A DNA stretch of 48,201 nt from Imperialibacter sp. EC-SDR9 (GTDB lineage Bacteria > Bacteroidota > Bacteroidia > Cytophagales > Cyclobacteriaceae), in assembly GCF_902498805.1 (NCBI RefSeq), contig NZ_LR701612.1, positions 1-48,201 on the forward strand. Reading direction: 5' to 3'. Within the stretch, counting starts at the first letter, position 1. Every line of letters starts with the position of its first letter. The translations under genes were made by a program, and so were the position numbers. Shown one piece after another: positions 27,604 through 39,790 of the stretch. Below the pieces are notes generated by a model. The model was given only the letters and a program-made list of their open reading frames with translations, searched no databases and had not been told where the DNA came from.

Positions 27604-29847
27604 ATGAGAAAAGTAATACTTATCGCTTTTATTTTATCAGCCCACATCGGCTTCTCGCAGTCGGTGCCTAAGCTGGTGGAGTTTGCGGAGGCACACTTTG
27701 AGGCACATCAGTACCTGGAGGCCATTGAGTACTATGAAAAGATTGTTAGTATCGATAAGCAAAACATTGAGTCGAGGTACAAGCTGGCCATTTGTTATCA
27801 ACAGACACTTCAGTACGATAAAGCGGAGGTAGCATTTGTTGCGCTGGGCAACCGACCCGACCATCCTTTTCGGGCAAGGTCACTTTACTATTATGCCACT
27901 TTGCGCATGCATGACAGTGCCTATGAGGAGGCGGACTCTGTTTACAATGTGTTGATCTCCATGCCTGATGCGAGTCCCGAGTTGATTGACTTATCCAGAA
28001 ACCATAAGGAGGGGTGTTTGCTGGCCATCAGGCAAAAGAAAATCGATCGGGGATTTAAGGTGGATGTGTTAGAAGGTATAAACTCAAAATTTCATGATTT
28101 TGGAGCAGTTGTAAATCCAGGCAATCTCCATTTGGTATTTGCCACTACCCGCAACCTGCCAGGCGAGCAGTTTGAGGGCAGTCAGTACGATGGGCTACTG
28201 CCTGACCTGGCTGCCTATGAGCACCGCCGCAACAACCGCTGGGTATATGCTGGAGGAGATCAAAATTTTGAAAATATTAATACACATTGGGCGGAGGGAT
28301 CCGGCTCCTTTACCGCCGATGGAAAGAAGTTCTATTTCTCATCCTGCCTGGGAGAGGCTGCTTCAGACTGTTCGATCTATGTTAGCTATCTGGAGAAAGA
28401 CAAATGGACAAAGCCCGTGGTGCTGAATGAGTACGTCAACGAGCCTGGGTCGGAAAACAAACATCCCTATATCACCAGCTCAGGGGACACGCTGTTTTTC
28501 AGCTCAGATCGGCCTGGCGGAGCCGGGGGAGCCGATATATGGATGAGTTTGACAGGGGCGTATGCCGAATCATGGTCGCCAGCCATTAATTTGGGTAAAG
28601 TAATTAACTCCTCGGAGAACGAAATAACACCTTACTACTCTGAGGTGTTCAGTTGCCTGGTGTTTGCCAGCGACGGACATGTCGGCTATGGCGGTTACGA
28701 CCTCTATGCAGCAAAAGGGCAGTCCTTTTTTGAGCCCCATGTCTACAATCTGGGCGCTCCGTTTAACTCCACCTGGGACGATACTTACTTTAATATTTCC
28801 GACTCCGTTGGCTTCCTCACCACCAACCGACTTGATGGGAAAATACTGGATCTTTTTTCCTTTCAGGTCAGCGATGAAAAGTTGTTTTTATCTCTTCTCA
28901 TTTCCGGAGAATCGCTGATAGATGCCCGTATTATGTCGAACCTGAGAGATACCAGATCGATTGATATTGTGACGCTCAGGGTAGAGGACTATCAGGGATA
29001 TGAGCTCTATGAAGCGGTCAACTTTGAGAAGCCAAAACCCGACCTTATAGTTGAAAAGCAAATGGGTGCCCGACCCAAAAAGGTATACAACCCGGAGGCA
29101 ATTGCGGACGGAACTGGCACGCAGAATGGAACGCAGGGAGCTGGATCACGGCGAACTGGTGGCGGATCATATTTACCATCAGGCGCTGGAGGCAGGGCTA
29201 GCCTGGGCTTTTCCGGTGGCAGGTCGGAGCCTTCCAGGGATCAGTCTTTTGAGAAGATTCTATTCGATTTCGGCATGGCGGTGTTACGACCACAAGCGAA
29301 AGCAGCTTTGAATAGCATGGTGGAGCAAGTGAGCATCGATGACATCAGCAAGATCAGCCTGTTTGGTTTTGCTGACAATCTTGGTGGCGAAGAGTACAAT
29401 ATGGAACTCTGTAAGAAAAGGGGAGAGGCTGTAAAGACCTATCTTACGACTCTTGGTGTGCCAGCCGAAAAGGTGTTTGTTTACCCACGGGGTGAATTAA
29501 CGCCTGAGGGTGACAGTGATCACTGGTTCAAAAGGATTTTGCGGAGAAGGGTGGAGGTGCAAATTGAGACGAACACTCCCGTTAGCCTGCTTTCGGCAAG
29601 CACCTACATCCTGAGAAAGCCTAATGACCTTATAGAGATCGCCAGGCAGCTTGGGTACGAATCGGATGCTTTGATCGCCTGGAATGGTCACCCAAAAAAG
29701 CCGTTACAAAAAGGCAGCACTATTCGGGTGTATGAACCAGCCCCGAACCCGCCAAATATGGCCAATTTTATCACTGAGGAGAATTTATTCGAATTTCTTC
29801 ACAAGGTGGAACTCAATGCTCCCCCTCTAGAAGTTTTTAGAGACTAG
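27604..29847 (+). CDS. TPR-PD40-OmpA-LysM protein (PorE-like)
   Basis: The product is 747 residues with signal peptide MRKVILIAFILSAHIGFSQ. Order of parts: TPR (~20-120, AIEYYEKIVSIDKQNIESRYKLA), PD40/WD40-like propeller strands (~160-400, FYFSSCLGE..., LFFSSDRPGGAGGADIW), a Gly/Ser-rich linker (~500-545), an OmpA-like peptidoglycan-binding domain (~550-650, ILFDFGMAVLRPQAKAAL and ADNLGGEEYNMELCKKRGEA) and a LysM-like module (~655-705, TYILRKPNDLIEIARQLGY). This combination is close to PorE and PorP-linked accessory proteins that tie the T9SS to the cell wall. It is the last gene of the surface operon and overlaps the convergent CHAT gene by 21 bases. Confidence 0.88.
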   Translation: MRKVILIAFILSAHIGFSQSVPKLVEFAEAHFEAHQYLEAIEYYEKIVSIDKQNIESRYKLAICYQQTLQYDKAEVAFVALGNRPDHPFRARSLYYYATLRMHDSAYEEADSVYNVLISMPDASPELIDLSRNHKEGCLLAIRQKKIDRGFKVDVLEGINSKFHDFGAVVNPGNLHLVFATTRNLPGEQFEGSQYDGLLPDLAAYEHRRNNRWVYAGGDQNFENINTHWAEGSGSFTADGKKFYFSSCLGEAASDCSIYVSYLEKDKWTKPVVLNEYVNEPGSENKHPYITSSGDTLFFSSDRPGGAGGADIWMSLTGAYAESWSPAINLGKVINSSENEITPYYSEVFSCLVFASDGHVGYGGYDLYAAKGQSFFEPHVYNLGAPFNSTWDDTYFNISDSVGFLTTNRLDGKILDLFSFQVSDEKLFLSLLISGESLIDARIMSNLRDTRSIDIVTLRVEDYQGYELYEAVNFEKPKPDLIVEKQMGARPKKVYNPEAIADGTGTQNGTQGAGSRRTGGGSYLPSGAGGRASLGFSGGRSEPSRDQSFEKILFDFGMAVLRPQAKAALNSMVEQVSIDDISKISLFGFADNLGGEEYNMELCKKRGEAVKTYLTTLGVPAEKVFVYPRGELTPEGDSDHWFKRILRRRVEVQIETNTPVSLLSASTYILRKPNDLIEIARQLGYESDALIAWNGHPKKPLQKGSTIRVYEPAPNPPNMANFITEENLFEFLHKVELNAPPLEVFRD

Positions 29848-32730
29848 AATATAAGCGCCCCAGTCGTAAGGGTTGTCATACTCCTTTCTAAACAGCCGTC
29901 TTGCGCTGAAGAAAGCGTCCTGTGGGTCCTCAAGTGACAACAATTCCTGATAGTAGATATTCATAAACCGACGAGCGGCATTGTCGTTGATTTTGACGAG
30001 GCTGAGTAAAATATTCTTGGCGCCTGCTACCAAAAAAGCACGCTGAAGACCGAATACCCCTTCTCCATTTTTTACCGTGCCCAGGCCGGTCTCGCAAGCG
30101 GCCAGTACGATGAGGCTGGTTTGATCCAGCACAAGGTTCATGGCTTCGTAGGCAGAAAGCAGCCCATCGTTATCGTCGGTCTCTTCTTCTCTGGAAAGAT
30201 AAATGCCACTGCTGTGAAGCGGGTCAACATGGTTAGGGTCGTCGTTGAAGTAGCCGTGGGTGGCGATGTGGATCAGCCCCGGATTCGACAGCCGTTTCAT
30301 TTGGCCCTCGGTGGCGTCGTTGAAATAATAGGTGTCCGACTTCCACTTCCTCACATCAAGGATGCCGGTGATGTCGTTGGCTTCACGCTCGGCCCCAGGG
30401 AGCTGAAGCAGTTTGTGTGTTTCGCCCAGCCGGCCAAAGTTAGGGTTGCCGAAGATCTTAGCATCTCTTACGAACTTGGTGTCTTCTGAGTACAGCAGGT
30501 CTTTTCCGCTAGTGATATGAATCAAGTCGTATTCATCGGCAATGTACATATCACGTTCATTGTCGAAAAAGATGACAGGGTTCAACTTATGAAAAAGGCC
30601 ATCAGGTGAAAAGTAAATGGTTTTCACGTCTTTCAAATGCGCTCCAATCGGTTTCCAAAACACGTTGTAGCTATTCACATCCTGCACGCCAAATTGCAGG
30701 GCGTTTTTGTACAGCGAAAAAGCCTTGGCAAAGTCTGTTTGCTTGGACCAGGTAACTGTTTCCAGCACATTGCCCGGCTTGATAACAAAGGCGGCATAGC
30801 GCTCCCTTTCTTCGAAACCCTGCTTCAGCTTTTTGTCACTTACCTCCACAGAATAATTCCTGAATTGAATGATATCCACCATGGCTGCGCCTTCCTTCAT
30901 TACTTCGCTCAACTCGTTCCAGGTGTGGTACGACGACTTCTCCTGATCGGAGAAGATTTTGAACGATAGAGAAAGCTCTTTTTCAAGCTGAGCCGATTCT
31001 GCCTCCAGCAGACTTATCGAAATATTTTGTCTTATCCTTTCTTCTTCCGTTAAAAGATACGCCTGGGCTAGCCTGTATTTTTTGTCCCGCCAGTCGTTGT
31101 ACATACTAACCACCTTTTCATCACCACTTCCCTGGATGAGTTTCTTCATTTTTTCGGAGGCATAGAAGAGAACCCCCTTGGTATTCAAGAAGTGGTTGAG
31201 CGCATCTTCGGCATATTGGCCACTGAAAAAGCTTTCAGAAAAAGCAAGCGAACAGAATCTTTCGATATTGTACCTGGTCTCATCAAAATAGAGCTTTCGC
31301 TGCCGGTCTGTTAACACAGGGAACACATCCTGCATGTGCTTTATTTCAGAATCGAGCGCTTCGTTAAATACGTCCATGGCTGCCACCGAATCTTCCATTA
31401 GCAAGTGATAAATGCCGAGGTCGTTGAGGCTTTTGATATACAGCGGATGGTATCTGCCCAGCGCTTTCTCCCGGATTTGCTTTGACTGCATCAGCAGCTT
31501 GCCGGACAGAGAATAGTTGCCCAGCTGCATGTAGAGCAGGGCTACGTTGTTCAGCGAAGTGGCGTAGTTTGGATGATTAACGCCCGACAGCACCTTGTCC
31601 ATGTCGAGCACCCTGGTGTACAGGTTGAGAGATTCGCCCAGCTCTCCTTTTTCTTTCAAAATGCCAGCCAGGTTGTTCAGGCTGCTGGCGTAATCAGGGT
31701 TCATGGTGCCGTAGAGGCTTTTGAAACCTTCAGAGCTTTCGGTGAAGCACTCCTCAGCTTTTTCCAGGTCACCTTTTTTCATGTAAATGGCACCGAGGTT
31801 GTTGAGCATATAGGGCCGGATATTCCGCAGGTCTTTGCCGGTTTCCAGCGCCTGATCCATGTACGATTCGGCAGATTCGAGGTCATTCAGCCGGTAATAC
31901 AGATAGCCCAGCTCATTCAATGTTTCCAGCATTTCATCGGGCTGGTCTCCATAAATCTCTCTCTTTCGTTCGAGGTTGTGCAGCAGGTAGTTTTCCGAGT
32001 CGGAATAGTCGCCTTGCTCGATTTTCAACGATGACAGCCTGTCAATCGCTTGAAAATACAGCCACTCATGGTTTCCCTGGGCAAGTTCTACTGCGCTTAT
32101 CAGTTCTTCTTCTCCGTGTTCAAGGTCGCCGAAATGCCTGTAAGTAGTGCCCAGCTCGATCTGGAGGGTAATTCTAATTGAATCATTCTTTTCGCCAATA
32201 AAACTAACAGCTTCATTAAGTGCGGCCAGGCTTTTTTCGAAATCGCCGGTTTCACGGTAGTAAATGCCTTTGTTCAGCAGGAATCGTGTTTGCGCTTCAT
32301 GATTGTTGAGGTACCATTTATTTACTACCCGCTCTGCGAGGTTCAAGTACCTGCCCGACGTTTCAAAATCTCCTGTCTCCTGATTGATAGTGGAAAGGTT
32401 ATAGTAAAGCCCGAGGAGATCTTTGTGGATAGAGTCTTTATTGACCAACTCGTGCTTAAGACCGGCTAACAGGCTGTTAACGCTTCGCTTTCTGTCGTTA
32501 AGGTCCCAAAAGAGCAGGCCTATATTGTTGTAGAGAGCCGCCAGGCCAATTTCTTCTACACACCTGCCCGAATCAAGGTCGACCAGCAGTGCGTTGGCAT
32601 AAAACTTTGCCTTCTCAGGATAGCTGTGCTTGTACCGCTCTACGCTGTCGTACTTCTGGATGCAGGTTTGCCCGGCAGCCGACAGGGCAGGCAGCATTAG
32701 TACAAGTACAAAGCTAAAAAGTTTCGTCAT
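29827..32730 (-). CDS. secreted TPR-CHAT domain protein, putative caspase-like peptidase
   Basis: From the ATG at 32730 the product is 967 residues with a signal peptide (MTKLFSFVLVLMLPALSAAGQ). Residues ~30-480 are tetratricopeptide repeats of the kinesin-light-chain style (YASSLNNLAGILKEKGELGESLNLY). Residues ~610-967 are a CHAT domain with the His-Cys dyad H825 (IHIATHGYF) and C879 (LAACETGLG). CHAT proteins are caspase/separase relatives, and an export signal places this one in the periplasm or at the surface. It is convergent to the T9SS-linked operon, with 3' ends overlapping. Substrate and activator are unknown. A GTG two codons upstream is an alternative start. Confidence 0.9.
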   Translation of the reverse strand: MTKLFSFVLVLMLPALSAAGQTCIQKYDSVERYKHSYPEKAKFYANALLVDLDSGRCVEEIGLAALYNNIGLLFWDLNDRKRSVNSLLAGLKHELVNKDSIHKDLLGLYYNLSTINQETGDFETSGRYLNLAERVVNKWYLNNHEAQTRFLLNKGIYYRETGDFEKSLAALNEAVSFIGEKNDSIRITLQIELGTTYRHFGDLEHGEEELISAVELAQGNHEWLYFQAIDRLSSLKIEQGDYSDSENYLLHNLERKREIYGDQPDEMLETLNELGYLYYRLNDLESAESYMDQALETGKDLRNIRPYMLNNLGAIYMKKGDLEKAEECFTESSEGFKSLYGTMNPDYASSLNNLAGILKEKGELGESLNLYTRVLDMDKVLSGVNHPNYATSLNNVALLYMQLGNYSLSGKLLMQSKQIREKALGRYHPLYIKSLNDLGIYHLLMEDSVAAMDVFNEALDSEIKHMQDVFPVLTDRQRKLYFDETRYNIERFCSLAFSESFFSGQYAEDALNHFLNTKGVLFYASEKMKKLIQGSGDEKVVSMYNDWRDKKYRLAQAYLLTEEERIRQNISISLLEAESAQLEKELSLSFKIFSDQEKSSYHTWNELSEVMKEGAAMVDIIQFRNYSVEVSDKKLKQGFEERERYAAFVIKPGNVLETVTWSKQTDFAKAFSLYKNALQFGVQDVNSYNVFWKPIGAHLKDVKTIYFSPDGLFHKLNPVIFFDNERDMYIADEYDLIHITSGKDLLYSEDTKFVRDAKIFGNPNFGRLGETHKLLQLPGAEREANDITGILDVRKWKSDTYYFNDATEGQMKRLSNPGLIHIATHGYFNDDPNHVDPLHSSGIYLSREEETDDNDGLLSAYEAMNLVLDQTSLIVLAACETGLGTVKNGEGVFGLQRAFLVAGAKNILLSLVKINDNAARRFMNIYYQELLSLEDPQDAFFSARRLFRKEYDNPYDWGAYILVSKNF

Positions 32731-33040
32731 TAGCACGTCTCAGGTCAATAGGCTCTAATCCATTAGCCGACAGTAAGTTGCTGTTTGGCCAGTAAAGAAC
32801 CCGTAAGTTAACATTATTTGATACTTCAATTGTGTAAAGAGTGCAAAAGAGCTACTCATTTGTCTGATTTAAGGAGGTGGAGCATTTCAATGCAGCAGCA
32901 GGCATCAGTGAAGTGGTTGAGTTAATATTTGATTACTATTGGTGTCCGGCTTTTTTCAGGCTATCATATACCGTACATTTGCGCCCCGACTCCCTTTTTA
33001 TCTTTTCTTAACCGTTTCATTTTCTAAATATCTTCGTTGC
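32731..33040. other. intergenic region with Shine-Dalgarno-led mini-ORF
   Basis: This 310-base divergent spacer has no standard gene. It contains AAGGAGGTGG at 32871-32880, an excellent Shine-Dalgarno, followed by ATG at 32890 and an 11-codon frame (MQQQASVKWLS, ending 32925). Just before the transglutaminase ATG is TATCTTCG (33028-33035), one mismatch from TAnnTTTG. The mini-ORF could be a leader peptide or chance. Confidence 0.25.
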
Positions 33041-34932: not shown

Positions 34933-35095
34933 ATATGGAGTTCTTGTGATGATGAAATGCTAAGGTAGACTTACCAACTAACTTTTTAGTTTTATTCTTT
35001 TTATTTTTTTGCCAATAAGTTCTGGCGAGTGTCTTCACATGTCGACATCCGAAGGTCGTGTGTCCCGGAAAGTGAAGACGCATGCCGTGGCCTGT

Positions 35096-35500
35096 TTATT
35101 CTAATTTGATCTTTTCTTCGACTTCAAGTTGATCAGCTTTTTGTCTGGTAGTTACATCAATCGTCAGTTTGCCATGCATATGTTTTTTTTCTGCTGCATG
35201 GTCAATTGGCCAATTCAATGTTGTTAACCACAGGTCATATTTTATCATCTTCTTCACGATAACTGTTGTTTTGGACTGGTTGTTCGCCCACAAATAAGGA
35301 AGCTTCTGGTATTCAGAATATTTGTTTTTCCATATATCGTTAAAAGTGAAATCCTTTCCATTAACCGTTACAATGTATTCTTTGATGTAGTGCTTTCCAT
35401 TGTTAAAAATTCGAACATCCACCGAATCATAGGTTGTTTGCTGTTGTCCGAAGCAGTTCAGAGAGACTAGAAACGAAAAAGCAATAAGAATTTTTTTCAT
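35096..35500 (-). CDS. small secreted hypothetical protein
   Basis: From the ATG at 35500 the product is 134 residues. This start is chosen because it opens with a good signal peptide (MKKILIAFSFLVSLNCFGQ); the upstream frame to 35572 is probably noncoding. The mature part is rich in Lys and aromatic residues and looks beta-stranded (VDVRIFNNGKHYIKEYIVTVNGKDF). I do not recognise a family. AT content is already somewhat raised here compared with the genes to its left, so it may lie at the edge of the adjacent AT-rich island. Confidence 0.65.
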   Translation of the reverse strand: MKKILIAFSFLVSLNCFGQQQTTYDSVDVRIFNNGKHYIKEYIVTVNGKDFTFNDIWKNKYSEYQKLPYLWANNQSKTTVIVKKMIKYDLWLTTLNWPIDHAAEKKHMHGKLTIDVTTRQKADQLEVEEKIKLE

Positions 35501-35662
35501 GATGATTCTGCGTATTGGAATGAGTAGCAATATGAGTGGCGGCGTATTACTCACTTCTGCATCCATTGGCAATTAGCCCTGCAGATGAATAAAATTATAC
35601 TTTGTGGCGAACATTCCAGCCAACTTGTCCCGATTGCAAAGGTGATTTTCATCTTGTCGAAT

Positions 35663-36643
35663 TCAACTGCCTATTATGGATAGTATTTTTTCTGTCAGAG
35701 CTTTAAAATCTGAGTAGGAGTTACGAACCGCACCTAGATGTGCTCCAATAGCACCTTCAGAAGGTTTTAATAGAAATATTGGTTTTCGAGCTTCCATAGC
35801 CATAGGGATCAAGCTATGATAGTGTTTTAGAAGCGCTATACAGTATTCGTCATTTTCAACGGCAATGTTTGAGTGCACATTGTCTTTCAAAACAAACTGC
35901 CTAAAAACTTGTGGTATTCTGTTTGCCCATTTCAGGTATGATTTTACTGGACGGCTCTCTTTGATGCCATGTTGCATTATTACATAGCCTAAAGGTTTCA
36001 TATCTCCCTTAGGTAATGCAAGTGTTGGCTCTGGGTTGCGTGACACCCGGTCCTCCCATTGAGTATGCCAGTCTTCTAACCTATTGCCTAGATTCTTCAA
36101 GCCCTGTAAAGAAAATAAATCAGCCGCCATAGGCACAATGACATAATCCGCAGCTATTAATGTAGCTCTATTTATTGCGCCAAAATTTGGTCCAATATCA
36201 ATTATGTTAAAATCAGCGCCAAATCTATGATTCGCTTCGGCTATGACCCTATAGAAGGAAGAAACTATCCGAAAAGCAGCCTCATCTCTATTTAGGCAAT
36301 TTCCCCAGCTACTGCTTAACTTATCTTCAAATAGAGATAACTCCAAGTCGCCAGCTAGCAACCCAATTTTATCGTTGATATTTTCAATATGCGCTATTTG
36401 TATATCACTGGTTCCTCTATTTAGCGGTCTGATGCTTTCAAGGATTGTCGGTCTTGACAACTCATTGTCGTATATCTCCTGTAGCCTCGAATCACTCAAA
36501 AACATCGAGGTTAGATTAGCTTGCGGGTCTAGGTCAATCGCTAAACTTTTGTATCCGAGCTCAGCGAGCATATAGGTAAAATGATATACTAGAGTGGTTT
36601 TCCCTACTTCCCCCTTGTTGTTGAAAAAAACAATTGTCTTCAT
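35663..36643 (-). CDS. ParA/Soj-like P-loop ATPase with altered Walker A
   Basis: The product is 326 residues. It has the deviant Walker A of the ParA/MinD class with signature lysine K10 (NNKGEVGKTTL), in which Glu replaces the usual second Gly of KGGVGKT. Walker A' is LAIDLDPQANLTSMF, and the switch region NIIDIGPNFGAINRATLIAADYVIVPM fits ParA proteins. No ParB gene or parS-like array is nearby, so plasmid-type partition is unlikely. It overlaps the upstream AlbA_2/ATPase gene by four bases, so the two are co-translated and probably function together. Sampled GC is clearly lower than in flanking genes. Confidence 0.88.
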   Translation of the reverse strand: MKTIVFFNNKGEVGKTTLVYHFTYMLAELGYKSLAIDLDPQANLTSMFLSDSRLQEIYDNELSRPTILESIRPLNRGTSDIQIAHIENINDKIGLLAGDLELSLFEDKLSSSWGNCLNRDEAAFRIVSSFYRVIAEANHRFGADFNIIDIGPNFGAINRATLIAADYVIVPMAADLFSLQGLKNLGNRLEDWHTQWEDRVSRNPEPTLALPKGDMKPLGYVIMQHGIKESRPVKSYLKWANRIPQVFRQFVLKDNVHSNIAVENDEYCIALLKHYHSLIPMAMEARKPIFLLKPSEGAIGAHLGAVRNSYSDFKALTEKILSIIGS

Positions 36644-37824
36644 CCTAGTTTTTTGAAAATAATGACACCAAAGCTTGTTGCCTGATCAAGAATAAACTCT
36701 GGCGCTGGATTCCCATTTTTTGCTAATGCTGCTCTTGCTCTTTTTACTCCAACATTAAAGCTGTTGATGAAACCCAGGTTTTTTGATGCTTCTGCTAAAG
36801 TAGGATTTCTATAGTCATTTTTATTCGGAAAGTTTTCCGGTCTGGCATCGCCAAAAAGCCCTCCTGGGTTTGAGATTTCGATGCGATTTGAGAATTCATA
36901 GAACTTAGTAGGAGCGTTGGATTGATAGTCTCTGTGAATAACTGCATTGTATAGAAGCTCCTGCACGGCAGAGCTGGGATAGGCAAACTCATATTCTTCC
37001 CCAAGCTTGTGCTGCACTCTCTTGGCAATTTGTGATTTGATAAAATCATCCATCACTTTCAATTGTGTTGTCAAATCTCCATCAAATCGATACTCAAAAT
37101 CGAAATCGCTAACTTCATCGTCACCCACAAAGCGCACATACTGCACATACGCACCTGGCATATAAAACCTTGGGTTCTTGCCAAATAAAAGCACACCAGC
37201 GTTTGTTGGACAATTTTCTTTAAGGTCATAGAATTTCAGGGAGGCCAATTGCTCAATTGTGTCTCGCCCGTTTTCCTCCAATGTGGCTTGATCGATGGCG
37301 GTCGGCAGGTAAGAATTTTTAAAAATATCGACGCTGATGTCGTCTATTGTGGTTCCAAAACATGGCTGAGTATCAAAAGTACGTGCAAATGTTGACCTTT
37401 TTTCACTCAAAATCCTTTCTTCAGCTTCATTAGCAACCCCTTTTCTGGGGCCGATCCTAATACAGACCTTTCCTTTGTAGCGAACAGGTGGGACAGAAGA
37501 TGGCTGTACTTCCACCACAGCAACATCACCGTCCGGATAGGTGAATTTGGTGACAGTCATAGCTGGAGGTGGAACAATTCTGCCATCCGTTCTAAAGCTC
37601 AATAGGGTTTGTAAAAGCTGTTCGTCGACGATTGTTCCATTTAGAGTTCCGTCGTCATTGACACCGACCAGCAAAAAGCCTGGCTTTCCGTTTCCAGGCA
37701 TATCGTTGCAAAATGAGCATATTGCCTCTCCAAATTTGTCAGCGTCAGTTCTTGAAATCGTTTTTTCTACACGGTCGGCTTCTAATTCCTTCAGCATTGC
37801 CGTTAGCTGGTCTTGCGTAATCAT
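36640..37824 (-). CDS. AlbA_2 (Schlafen-like) and GHKL-ATPase domain protein
   Basis: From the ATG at 37824 the product is 394 residues; a TTG two codons upstream is less likely. Residues ~15-140 are an AlbA_2/Schlafen-type nucleic-acid-binding domain (ADKFGEAICSFCNDM, GFLLVGVNDDGTLNGT and CIRIGPRKGVANEAEE). Residues ~280-345 carry a HATPase_c_4 module with the N-box ELLYNAVIHRDYQ and the G1-like IEISNPGGLFG, as in COG2865 'ATP-binding transcriptional regulators'. The C-terminus resembles a winged-helix part (NPTLAEASKNLGFINSFNVGVKRA). It starts a two-gene operon with a ParA-like ATPase. Such proteins recur in defence or accessory islands, but the function is unproven. Confidence 0.88.
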   Translation of the reverse strand: MITQDQLTAMLKELEADRVEKTISRTDADKFGEAICSFCNDMPGNGKPGFLLVGVNDDGTLNGTIVDEQLLQTLLSFRTDGRIVPPPAMTVTKFTYPDGDVAVVEVQPSSVPPVRYKGKVCIRIGPRKGVANEAEERILSEKRSTFARTFDTQPCFGTTIDDISVDIFKNSYLPTAIDQATLEENGRDTIEQLASLKFYDLKENCPTNAGVLLFGKNPRFYMPGAYVQYVRFVGDDEVSDFDFEYRFDGDLTTQLKVMDDFIKSQIAKRVQHKLGEEYEFAYPSSAVQELLYNAVIHRDYQSNAPTKFYEFSNRIEISNPGGLFGDARPENFPNKNDYRNPTLAEASKNLGFINSFNVGVKRARAALAKNGNPAPEFILDQATSFGVIIFKKLG

Positions 37825-37827
37825 TCC

Positions 37828-37835
37828 CAAATTTA
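37828..37835 (-). promoter_or_regulatory. -7 box of the AlbA_2/ParA operon (TAAATTTG)
   Basis: Minus-strand TAAATTTG fits TAnnTTTG and ends three bases before the ATG at 37824, implying a leaderless transcript. A TTG exists 24 bases further upstream (37862-37860), slightly beyond the usual spacing. Confidence 0.4.
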
Positions 37836-37921
37836 CAATAATATTCTATCTATAATCTTCAAGCATCATTGGTATATTTGATCATTTACTACCTTAAAAT
37901 GATAGCTTTACTAAACATCCA

Positions 37922-37984: not shown

Positions 37985-39790
37985 ATGTCCGAACGATCAT
38001 CGATGAATTTAGAGGAGCAGTTGAAGGAAGGCATTTCACAGGCCTTCAAGGAAGTATTTAACCACGAGCTAGCGGCACAGGATGTTGCTTTTCAGCCTAC
38101 CAGGAAGGAATTTGAGGGTTCACACACCTTTGTCACTTTTCCCTACCTGAAAGTAACGGGCAAGAACCCGGAAGAAACTGGCAAGCTGCTGGGCGACTTT
38201 CTGGTAGCGCATGTTGGCGTGGTGTCCGCCTACAATGTGGTGAAAGGCTTCCTCAATATCACGATGAGTGATACGCTCTGGGGCAAAACGCTGTCGGAAG
38301 TATATGCCAACCCATCTTTCGGCATCACGGCGCCTCACGGTGGCAAGGTGATGGTAGAGTTTTCCTCACCCAACACCAACAAGCCGCTTCACCTCGGCCA
38401 CCTGCGCAACAACTTCCTCGGCGATTCTACCTCACGGATTCTGCAAGCCCATGGCTACGAGGTGTTCAAGGTAAACCTTGTGAACGATAGGGGCATTCAT
38501 ATCTGCAAGTCGATGCTGGCCTATAGCAAATGGGGGAATGGTGAAACACCTGAGTCAGCAGGGCTGAAAGGCGATCACCTGATTGGTAAGTACTATGTAA
38601 TTTTCGATAAGGAGTACAAAAAAGAAATTGAAACGCTGAAGGCGCAGGGCATAGAGGAAGAAACTGCGAAGAAAAAGGCACCGCTGATTCTGGAGGCACA
38701 AACGGTGCTGAAGAAGTGGGAGGAGAATGATGCCGACACTGTTGCGCTCTGGAAGCTGATGAACGGCTGGGTGTACGAGGGTTTCGACGCCACCTACAAG
38801 GCTATGGGAGTGAGCTTCGACAAGATGTACCAGGAGTCGAACACTTACCTGCTGGGTAAAGATATCGTGGATGAAGGCCTTGCCAAAGGTGTGTTTTACA
38901 AAAAAGAGGACGGCTCGGTGTGGGCCGATCTCACCGAAGAAGGACTGGATCACAAGCTGGTGCTGCGCTCCGATGGCACGTCGGTGTACATGACCCAGGA
39001 CCTGGGTACCGCCGACATGAAGTACGCCGACTATCCGTTCAATAAGTCGATTTACGTGGTGGGCAACGAGCAGGACTACCACTTCAAAGTGCTGTTTAGT
39101 ATTTTGAAAAGGCTGGGTCGCAGCTATGCTGATGGGCTTTATCACCTGTCGTATGGCATGGTCGATTTGCCTTCTGGCAAAATGAAAAGCCGGGAAGGGA
39201 CCGTGGTGGATGCCGATGAGCTGATCCAGGAAATGCTGGATACCGCAGAGAAACACACCACTGAGTTGGGCAAAATAGAAGGCTTTACTGAGGCAGAAGC
39301 CAAAGAGCTTTACAATACCCTGGCGCTTGGTGCGCTCAAATACTACCTGCTAAAGGTAGATCCCAAGAAAAGGATGCTGTTCAACCCACAGGAGTCTGTG
39401 GAATTTCATGGACATACTGGCCCCTTTGTGCAGTATACCCACGCCCGTATCACGGCCATTTTAAGAAAGGCAGAGCAGCTGAGTATTGATCTGAAGGGCT
39501 TCGACCCGTCGGCATTGGAGCTTGAGACACTAGAGGCTGAAGTGATCCGTGTGATAGCCGACTTCCCTGACAAAGTGAGAGTGGCGGCGGAAGAGCTGAA
39601 CCCAGCCGTGGTGGCTAATTATGTGTTTGACCTGGCAAAGGAATACAACCGGTTCTATACAGAGCATTCCATTTTTAATGAGGACAACCAGGAAAAAGTG
39701 AAGCTGCGGGTGATGCTTTCGTTGGTAGTCGCCAGAACAATTAAAACGGGAATGGGGTTATTGGGAATAGACGTTCCTGATAGGATGTAA
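37985..39790 (+). CDS. argS: arginyl-tRNA synthetase
   Basis: From the ATG at 37985 the product is 601 residues, the usual length. It charges tRNA-Arg with arginine and is essential. It has the N-terminal additional domain (LKEGISQAFKEVF), the class I HIGH motif as LHLGHLRN, the ArgRS-specific VNDRGIHICKSMLAY, and the KMSKS-like KMKSREGT. The C-terminal helical anticodon-binding domain is complete and ends GIDVPDRM. A second ATG at 38003 (MNLEEQL) is an equally reasonable start, and a TTG at 37973 is unlikely. A very stable hairpin follows the stop. Confidence 0.97.
   Translation: MSERSSMNLEEQLKEGISQAFKEVFNHELAAQDVAFQPTRKEFEGSHTFVTFPYLKVTGKNPEETGKLLGDFLVAHVGVVSAYNVVKGFLNITMSDTLWGKTLSEVYANPSFGITAPHGGKVMVEFSSPNTNKPLHLGHLRNNFLGDSTSRILQAHGYEVFKVNLVNDRGIHICKSMLAYSKWGNGETPESAGLKGDHLIGKYYVIFDKEYKKEIETLKAQGIEEETAKKKAPLILEAQTVLKKWEENDADTVALWKLMNGWVYEGFDATYKAMGVSFDKMYQESNTYLLGKDIVDEGLAKGVFYKKEDGSVWADLTEEGLDHKLVLRSDGTSVYMTQDLGTADMKYADYPFNKSIYVVGNEQDYHFKVLFSILKRLGRSYADGLYHLSYGMVDLPSGKMKSREGTVVDADELIQEMLDTAEKHTTELGKIEGFTEAEAKELYNTLALGALKYYLLKVDPKKRMLFNPQESVEFHGHTGPFVQYTHARITAILRKAEQLSIDLKGFDPSALELETLEAEVIRVIADFPDKVRVAAEELNPAVVANYVFDLAKEYNRFYTEHSIFNEDNQEKVKLRVMLSLVVARTIKTGMGLLGIDVPDRM

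What the first reader, a model, noticed from the sequence alone, without database searches (positions are those of the whole stretch)
35663..37824. AT-rich AlbA_2/GHKL-ATPase plus ParA-like two-gene module
Two minus-strand genes overlap by four bases and encode a Schlafen-type AlbA_2 plus GHKL-ATPase protein and a ParA-like ATPase with an altered Walker A (KGEVGKTT). No ParB, recombinase or plasmid genes are near. Composition differs from flanks: I counted 19 G/C of 60 at 36361-36420 versus 35 of 60 at 38761-38820 in argS. The pair sits between housekeeping genes with its own leaderless-type promoter. Co-translation, transfer signs and domain types suggest an undescribed accessory, perhaps anti-phage, system. 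The defence role is inference.
Basis: partly seen in the sequence, partly recalled or inferred. Interest (0 to 1): 0.72.

Follow-up and report, generated by a model that had tools for sequence, protein, structure and literature searches.

The report
Schlafen-ParA two-gene defence module
Two tightly joined bacterial genes, a likely RNA-cutting enzyme of the Schlafen type and a ParA-like ATP-driven switch, travel together across many bacterial phyla and in one relative sit among known virus-defence genes, so they are probably an uncharacterised anti-virus system; in this genome the switch carries an unusual and perhaps disabling change.

Summary
A Schlafen AlbA_2 + HATPase_c_4 gene (36640-37824, -) overlaps a ParA-like gene (35663-36643, -) by 4 bases, in a 2.8-kb AT-rich segment absent from a same-genus genome. 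The pairing is conserved: in 79 of 80 fetched ParA relatives, from some 15 phyla, AlbA_2 DNA lies directly upstream (the 80th is cut by its contig end); 66 of 73 full-length pairs overlap by exactly 4 bases. None of 20 genomes checked has a ParB gene near the pair. The altered Walker A (KGE) is private to this copy. Sister clades of the ParA are joined to SIR2, RelA_SpoT or HEPN proteins, or lack such a partner. In one relative the pair sits between BREX genes pglX and pglZ; a second ends in a pglZ remnant. Flanks in general showed no clear excess of defence genes over controls. Best reading: an accessory anti-phage module with a Schlafen RNase effector and a ParA switch. Six loci keep an AlbA_2 with both key acids while ParA is altered or lost, against ParA as indispensable antitoxin; one further locus (G019) fits the antitoxin model. 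New variant of a known kind; function untested.

The parts
36640..37824 (-). Gene 1: AlbA_2 (Schlafen core) + HATPase_c_4 (GHKL) protein, 394 aa, likely RNase effector; no HTH match by Pfam
   Evidence: aligned with 72 relatives
37441..37773 (-). SLFN_AlbA_2 domain, residues 18-128 by Pfam
   Evidence: E 7.5e-14
37765..37782 (-). E15-x4-E20: two acidic residues with the spacing of the Schlafen active-site pair (that spacing is recalled)
   Evidence: both present in 73 of 73 rows of A1; outside A1, E15 is G in G019
36658..36900 (-). HATPase_c_4 domain, residues 309-389
   Evidence: E 1.5e-15
35663..36643 (-). Gene 2: ParA-like deviant Walker A ATPase, 326 aa, likely switch/sensor
   Evidence: aligned with 77 relatives; model pLDDT 91.9; best PDB match 3pg5
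36596..36616 (-). Walker A, residues 10-16, KGEVGKT; most relatives read KGGVGKT
   Evidence: 75 of 78 rows have G at residue 12
36640..36643 (-). 4-base ATGA stop/start overlap of the two genes
   Evidence: same 4-base overlap in 66 of 73 full-length pairs of other genomes
35087..37920 (.). Segment absent from a same-genus genome, which carries 1,584 bp of unrelated DNA at the same place
   Evidence: 40.1% GC
37828..37835 (-). TAAATTTG, possible -7 promoter element 3 bases before the ATG of gene 1
   Evidence: read from the sequence; motif recalled; not tested
35096..35572 (-). 158-aa ORF inside the same segment, no Pfam, NCBIfam or PADLOC match at 0.01; relation to the pair unknown

Best explanation
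A horizontally moving two-gene anti-phage module. The AlbA_2-GHKL protein is the effector: a Schlafen-type endoribonuclease (probably cutting tRNA or other RNA) gated by its ATP-binding GHKL domain. The ParA-like protein is an ATP-dependent switch, probably dimerising on DNA, that turns the effector on during infection, stopping translation and phage growth. Shown here: the conserved pair, its tight overlap, the conserved acidic pair, accessory location, a copy nested among BREX genes, and partner exchange among sister ParAs. Inferred: RNase activity, DNA binding, the trigger, the abortive outcome, and activation rather than neutralisation by ParA. In this genome the Walker A change may leave the module inactive.
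For: Near-obligate neighbours: 79 of 80 loci; in a 395-genome sample 20 of 21 AlbA_2 matches have a ParA match beside them, and 20 of 21 ParA matches above 250 bits have AlbA_2, the 21st lying at a contig end (at least nine of these genomes are also among the 80 loci, so the two counts overlap). Distances of the two proteins correlate, r 0.86 over 72 pairs, 0 of 500 permutations as high. Schlafen acids in 73 of 73 rows; Foldseek places the AlbA_2 model next to 3lmm and then, weakly (E 4.5e-4 to 9e-4), human SLFN14, 12 and 11. Pair between pglX and pglZ, followed by brxL, in L168; pglZ remnant behind the pair in L019. Sister ParAs operonic with SIR2 (26), RelA_SpoT (20) and HEPN (7) proteins, in clades that follow the partner. 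Six loci with an open AlbA_2 holding both acids but altered or missing ParA: window, L049, L050, L055, L071, G333.
Against: No clear excess of defence genes in flanks over control regions. No PADLOC model covers the pair. BREX genes beside the pair in only 1 of the 80 genome loci (L019, a remnant) and one viral contig (L168). 32 of 109 tree rows are ParAs with none of the four partner types, without conserved neighbours. G019, where ParA has lost its Walker A region, has also lost the acid E15 of AlbA_2, as a toxin-antitoxin model or plain decay would predict. The third Schlafen acid is not invariant (D57 in 62 of 73). Natural lesions come partly from metagenome assemblies and could be errors. 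No activity was tested.
Confidence: 0.53

Rival explanations
1. Toxin-antitoxin pair: AlbA_2-GHKL is a constitutively toxic RNase and ParA is its antitoxin, as proposed in 2013 for the HEPN-ParA dyad.
For: Compact, probably translationally coupled dyad; 2013 postulate for HEPN-ParA (PMC3710099, passages); partner exchange resembles promiscuous antitoxins such as Panacea (PMC8832971, abstract and outline); in G019 the loss of the ParA Walker A region goes with loss of the AlbA_2 acid E15; four loci have AlbA_2 damaged beside an open ParA (L010, L039, L052, L074).
Against: Six loci keep an open AlbA_2 with both acids while ParA has a Walker A substitution (window, L049, L050, L055, L071) or is absent (G333). 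A nucleotide-independent antitoxin would still fit the five substitution cases, leaving G333 as the clean one. Effector-first gene order differs from the SIR2, HEPN and RelA_SpoT sisters, where ParA comes first.
Confidence: 0.25
2. A partition or DNA-positioning system, or remnant of one, with AlbA_2 as DNA-binding adaptor in place of ParB.
For: ParA fold; PHROGs names the family ParA-like partition protein; many sister ParAs occur on plasmids and viral contigs.
Against: A ParB_N profile search of 22 genomes (20 with the pair, the window's own and a same-genus one) gave 26 matches in 21 genomes, none within 100 kb of the pair on its contig; tblastn with two ParB proteins found none in the 80 loci, though each query recovered only itself, so that test is weak. 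The window's genome has a Soj-like gene beside its ParB elsewhere. The Vibrio ponticus plasmid carries an annotated ParA-ParB pair besides a ParA-SIR2 pair.
Confidence: 0.08
3. A housekeeping or stress regulator: AlbA_2-GHKL as nucleic-acid-binding regulator with an ATPase partner, not defence.
For: Flanks are mostly ordinary genes; distant AlbA_2 relatives on plasmids are annotated as RNA-binding domain-containing proteins or transcriptional regulators.
Against: Patchy distribution (20 of 395 genomes), presence/absence within a genus, spread over some 15 phyla at about 50-55% ParA identity outside Bacteroidota, a copy among BREX genes, kinship with ParAs joined to SIR2, HEPN and RelA_SpoT.
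Confidence: 0.12

Closest known systems
HEPN (MAE_18760 family)-ParA/Soj dyad predicted as toxin-antitoxin (Anantharaman et al. 2013, PMC3710099, passages seen)
   Same: A ParA/Soj-like ATPase gene in a dyad with a predicted RNase; our tree holds one clade of six ParAs joined to HEPN proteins
   Different: Here the effector is Schlafen AlbA_2 + GHKL, upstream of ParA; the ParA clade is distinct; six loci do not fit an indispensable antitoxin. Two of our HEPN partners matched Pfam HEPN_RiboL-PSP; identity with MAE_18760 was not tested
Schlafen RNase + minimal histidine kinase + wHTH proteins linked to BREX (PMC12839542, passages seen)
   Same: Schlafen core plus GHKL-type domain, found with BREX loci
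   Different: No HTH match in the window protein; 73 full-length partners are 387-403 aa, whereas L249, with HTH and no ParA gene found beside it, is 519 aa. Word searches of the paper's main text found no ParA, Soj, MinD or SIMIBI
Corynebacterium diphtheriae proteins 3pg5 (DIP2308) and 3lmm (DIP2311), solved structures listed without a function
   Same: 3pg5 is a full-length relative of the ParA clade (E 1.5e-75) and 3lmm the best structural match of the AlbA_2 protein; locus numbers three apart suggest neighbours
   Different: Their gene neighbourhood was not examined; 3lmm is longer (583 aa) and its significant sequence match covers only the GHKL part
ParABS / Soj partition
   Same: ParA fold and, in the family, the KGGxGK[ST] motif
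   Different: No ParB nearby, AlbA_2 partner, longer protein with its own conserved C-terminal part
Panacea (DUF4065) hyperpromiscuous antitoxin (PMC8832971, abstract and outline seen)
   Same: One partner domain joined to many different toxic domains
   Different: Unrelated protein (recalled); Panacea neutralises its toxins, which is untested here

Membership tests
Schlafen core (SLFN_AlbA_2) RNases | AlbA_2 domain by profile | tested here: met
   Pfam 7.5e-14, curated cut-off passed
Schlafen core (SLFN_AlbA_2) RNases | Two glutamates five apart plus a third acidic residue (positions recalled from animal Schlafens) | tested here: inconclusive
   E15 and E20 in 73 of 73; D57 in 62, D58 in 39 of 73
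Schlafen core (SLFN_AlbA_2) RNases | Structural match to solved Schlafen domains | tested here: inconclusive
   SLFN14/12/11 at Foldseek E 4.5e-4 to 9.1e-4, TM about 0.2 over the whole query, with a bacteriophytochrome at 5.1e-4 among them; model pTM 0.64
Schlafen core (SLFN_AlbA_2) RNases | Endoribonuclease activity | not testable with these tools
   -
GHKL ATPases (HATPase_c_4) | Domain by profile with N-box asparagine | tested here: met
   Pfam 1.5e-15; N293 in 72 of 73
ParABS partition | ParA-type ATPase fold | tested here: met
   AAA_31 2.9e-29; Foldseek matches to Soj and ParA
ParABS partition | Adjacent parB | tested here: not met
   No PF02195 match within 100 kb of the pair on its contig in 20 genomes, and none on the window's contig
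ParABS partition | parS sites | not tested
   -
HEPN-ParA toxin-antitoxin dyad (2013) | HEPN RNase partner | tested here: not met
   Partner matches AlbA_2/HATPase_c_4, no HEPN match
HEPN-ParA toxin-antitoxin dyad (2013) | ParA-like ATPase in a compact dyad | tested here: met
BREX | BREX core genes beside the pair | tested here: not met
   No significant PglZ or PglX match within about 500-600 bp of the window pair; pglX, pglZ and brxL beside the pair in relative L168 (brxA-C not looked for), pglZ remnant in L019
Known systems of PADLOC-DB 2.0 | Full-length match of both proteins to a system's models | tested here: not met
   Partial matches only: pAgo 6.8e-23 and two Aga_SIR2 models for AlbA_2, PDC-M28B 2.5e-4 over 38 residues for ParA

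The most novel reading that the evidence does not exclude
One clade of ParA-like ATPases is a general plug-in switch of bacterial immunity: each subclade drives a different cell-stopping enzyme (Schlafen RNase, SIR2 NADase, HEPN RNase, RelA/SpoT-type synthetase), and ATP-dependent ParA action on DNA activates rather than neutralises it, so that losing ParA silences the module. In the Schlafen branch ParA takes the place of the C-terminal DNA-binding wHTH of its BREX-linked cousins.
Probability: 0.26. Interest if true: 0.82.

Novelty: new variant of a known kind. Interest (0 to 1): 0.62.

Why it matters
ParA ATPases are commonly read as plasmid or chromosome partition proteins; PHROGs labels this family so. 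If this clade is an immune switch, many such annotations in phages, plasmids and chromosomes (504 relatives in viral contigs alone) need a second look, and a DNA-bound ATPase becomes a testable infection sensor with exchangeable effectors. A solved structure without assigned function (3pg5) is already available for the clade.

Tried and rejected
Altered Walker A as a family trait: rejected, private to this copy. Partition: no ParB near (the earlier tblastn test was weak, because each of its two queries recovered only itself). Known PADLOC system: no full match. Defence-island enrichment: 20 loci on long contigs against one 12-kb region from each same contig; no clear excess. Only summary counts were obtainable: 81 against 30 PADLOC models hit at 1e-20 (several models hit the same protein, so this is no count of proteins), and Pfam AbiEii in 3 of 139 flank ORFs while it is not among the 25 control families shown. 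Mobile-element ends: no tRNA in the window and no repeat pair at the segment's ends. BREX relics beside the window pair: none significant. Conserved neighbours of partnerless ParAs: none.

Rows dropped: A1 (72 loci + window) leaves out L010 (frame change near its C-terminus), L012, L042, L077 (cut by contig ends) and L039, L052, L053, L074 (damaged); A2 (77 loci + window) leaves out L051, L053 and L077. Flank ORFs under 150 or over 760 aa were dropped, leaving 139; of 154 control ORFs so filtered 15 were dropped by hand to match 139, which removed one of the 20 control regions (L267) entirely. Tree input was thinned from 128 to 109 rows at 88% identity. Of 40 plasmid places listed I looked at 12, chosen by hand. 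A first paper search was useless because 'para' matched word beginnings.
Full report
What is there. The window is contig 34 of a 6.8-Mb genome. A genome called same-family (G034) has its pair on a contig of the same length (162,126) as the Lunatibacter salilacus contig behind L015, so the family is probably Cyclobacteriaceae, Bacteroidota. On the minus strand lie an AlbA_2 + HATPase_c_4 gene (36640-37824, 394 aa) and, overlapping by ATGA, a ParA-like gene (35663-36643, 326 aa). argS starts about 150 bp away in the opposite direction.

Accessory segment. A same-genus genome (G001, argS 90% identical DNA) shares the flanks but not the pair: homology ends at 35086 and resumes at 37921, and G001 holds 1,584 bp of other DNA there with a 209-aa ORF of no Pfam match at 0.001. 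The segment is the AT-rich stretch: 40.1% GC against 47.7%; 795 overlapping windows of equal length outside it span 43.4-51.6%. No tRNA and no repeat pair at the ends were found, so how it came is unknown.

Conservation of the pair. One scan of 84,980 species genomes returned 132 ParA relatives, of which the best 80 were kept. In 79 of 80 AlbA_2 homology, intact or damaged, lies directly upstream in the same direction; L077 begins inside ParA at its contig end. Of 73 full-length pairs 66 overlap by exactly 4 bases. Record titles place the loci in Pseudomonadota 23, Bacteroidota 18, Chlorobiota 9, Verrucomicrobiota 8, Myxococcota 8, ten further phyla or candidate groups with one or two each, and 2 unplaced (titles of metagenome bins can be outdated). 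In an even sample of 395 genomes of the phylum as the tool groups it, ParA matched in 25 (E 1e-25) and AlbA_2 in 20 (E 1e-50). Of 21 AlbA_2 matches 20 have ParA beside them (G333 does not); of 21 ParA matches above 250 bits 20 have AlbA_2 (G082 is cut by its contig end). This is not independent of the 80 loci: by contig and position at least nine genomes recur (G198, G233, G268, G299, G303, G339, G366, G374, G409 are the sources of L073, L070, L050, L071, L058, L060, L069, L053, L067). Without these and the window's own, eleven genomes remain: nine paired, G333 with AlbA_2 only, G082 cut. The five weaker ParA loci (108-203 bits) have no AlbA_2; their neighbours are SIR2, HEPN and RelA_SpoT, and two have no such partner. 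Distances of the two proteins correlate at r 0.86 over 72 pairs. Both are under purifying selection: against L005 pN is 0.08 and 0.09, with synonymous sites saturated.

The proteins. E15 and E20 of AlbA_2 are present in 73 of 73 rows of A1, N293 of the GHKL N-box in 72. The AlbA_2 model (mean pLDDT 88.4, pTM 0.64) best matches 3lmm (DIP2311) and then, weakly, human Schlafens. The ParA model (pLDDT 91.9, pTM 0.90) best matches 3pg5 (DIP2308), which is also a full-length sequence relative (E 1.5e-75), far above Soj (2.7e-26). Both entries come from Corynebacterium diphtheriae and carry locus numbers three apart; the neighbourhood itself was not seen. Walker A: 75 of 78 ParA rows have G at residue 12; the window has E, L049 R, L055 C; L050 and L071 have K10R and K15T. 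Among 106 ParAs of the wider tree 95 read KGG[VIL][GS]KT, eight read KGGVGKS, and the other three are the window, L050 and L152.

No partition partner. ParB_N (PF02195) was sought in 22 genomes: the 20 behind long-contig loci, the window's own and G001. 21 of 22 genomes have it, 26 matches in all, and none lies within 100 kb of the pair on its contig. In the window's genome ParB is on contig 28 beside a Soj-like gene.

Natural lesions. Six loci keep an open AlbA_2 with E15 and E20 while ParA is changed or gone: the window, L049, L050, L055, L071 and G333, which has no ParA match. Four have the reverse, AlbA_2 damaged beside an open ParA: L010, L039, L052, L074. Four are damaged in both: L053 (the same contig as G374), G092, G325, and G019, where a ParA without its first 36 residues and its end runs on from AlbA_2 in one frame and AlbA_2 has G at position 15. 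A continuously needed antitoxin should not be lost while the toxin stays intact, so the six favour ParA as activator; G019 fits the antitoxin model or plain decay. Reservations: the substitutions were not shown to inactivate, an antitoxin need not use ATP, and several sources are metagenome assemblies.

Sister ParAs. Relatives at about 24-37% identity have other overlapping partners. In plasmids: SIR2 in Spirosoma, Vibrio ponticus and Salmonella, HEPN in Burkholderia glumae; others looked at had none annotated beside them. A viral-contig scan gave 504 relatives, best 80 kept. Neighbours of at least 150 aa within 60 bp, clustered by BLAST together with ten plasmid and genome partners, give SIR2 26 (19 of the 80 viral loci), RelA_SpoT 20 (19 viral) and HEPN 7 (5 viral); 2 viral loci have AlbA_2; the other 35 viral loci have no such partner, another neighbour, or end too soon. 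Pfam named ten of these partners directly (7 SIR2_2, 2 HEPN_RiboL-PSP, 1 RelA_SpoT); the others follow by similarity. In a tree of 109 rows all 26 AlbA_2-linked ParAs form one clade (SH-aLRT 100), the six HEPN ones another (97), the 22 SIR2 ones lie in one 25-row clade (97), and RelA_SpoT ones in two places (14 and 2). Thirty-two rows have none of these four partners, and no conserved neighbour was found for them. The quick tree method and long outgroup branches make the root unsure.

Link to known defence. In viral contig L168 (68% identical ParA) the pair stands between pglX (PADLOC 1,340 bits) and pglZ (934 bits, overlapping ParA by 4 bases), followed by brxL (848 bits), the gene set of a type I BREX operon; brxA-C were not looked for. 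In L019 the pair is followed by 68 codons like the start of pglZ and then nothing recognisable. Of 211 loci scanned only these two contigs showed it (L248 is the L168 contig again). Against this, PADLOC and Pfam scans of 139 flank ORFs from 20 loci and 139 control ORFs from the same contigs did not show a clear excess. So the defence link is specific but rare in this sample.

Literature. PMC3710099 (passages) predicts a HEPN-ParA/Soj dyad as toxin-antitoxin, with ParA as antitoxin. PMC12839542 (passages) reports Schlafen RNases with minimal histidine kinase and wHTH linked to BREX; word searches for ParA, Soj, MinD and SIMIBI in its main text found none. PMC8832971 (abstract and outline) describes the promiscuous antitoxin Panacea. 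PMC5379612 (passages), PMC7159879 (passages) and PMC2701414 (one passage) mention ParA in other settings. In the listings of ten searches and the passages read I saw no description of the AlbA_2-ParA pair or of ParA with SIR2 or RelA_SpoT; most listed papers were not opened, and subscription papers and preprints are largely outside that library.

Verdict. A real, conserved, horizontally spread two-gene module, most likely an accessory anti-phage system with a Schlafen RNase effector and a ParA ATPase switch; the copy in this window may be inactive. Function is inference throughout.

Noticed in passing
L170, L213, L227, L181-L184, L115, L117 and others: ParAs of the same clade in viral contigs and plasmids with none of the four partner types and no conserved neighbours; the two scanned with PHROGs from this list (L170, L213) and L182 match the family labelled ParA-like partition protein. 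Function open.
   Followed up: partly
L249:4001-5560: AlbA_2 relative (49% identical) on a viral contig with a C-terminal HTH_11 domain; the next ORF is not a ParA. ParA and HTH may be alternatives.
   Followed up: partly
L245:5062-5733: ORF overlapping a sister ParA by one base that looks like a nucleotide cyclase by eye; no Pfam match.
   Followed up: no
plasmid hits H42-H60 and others: Many more distant AlbA_2 relatives on plasmids have the match reaching into a gene annotated as TrlF family AAA-like ATPase: perhaps a second kind of ATPase partner for this effector type.
   Followed up: no
G462 contig 2 (L060): A Chlorobiaceae genome with two copies of the ParA about 18 kb apart; at the same coordinates of G339 both copies have AlbA_2 beside them.
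   Followed up: no
L126:6593-8380 (-): AlbA_2 and a truncated ParA in one open frame, 4.7 kb from argS, in another genus of the same family.
   Followed up: partly
window 29827-32736 (-): 969-aa protein with TPR repeats and a CHAT (caspase-like protease, recalled) domain, about 2.4 kb from the pair's segment; also present in the same-genus genome.
   Followed up: no
window 35087-37920 versus L125:9982-11565: The interval between the DUF6624 gene and argS holds unrelated DNA in two species of one genus and may be a variable site.
   Followed up: partly
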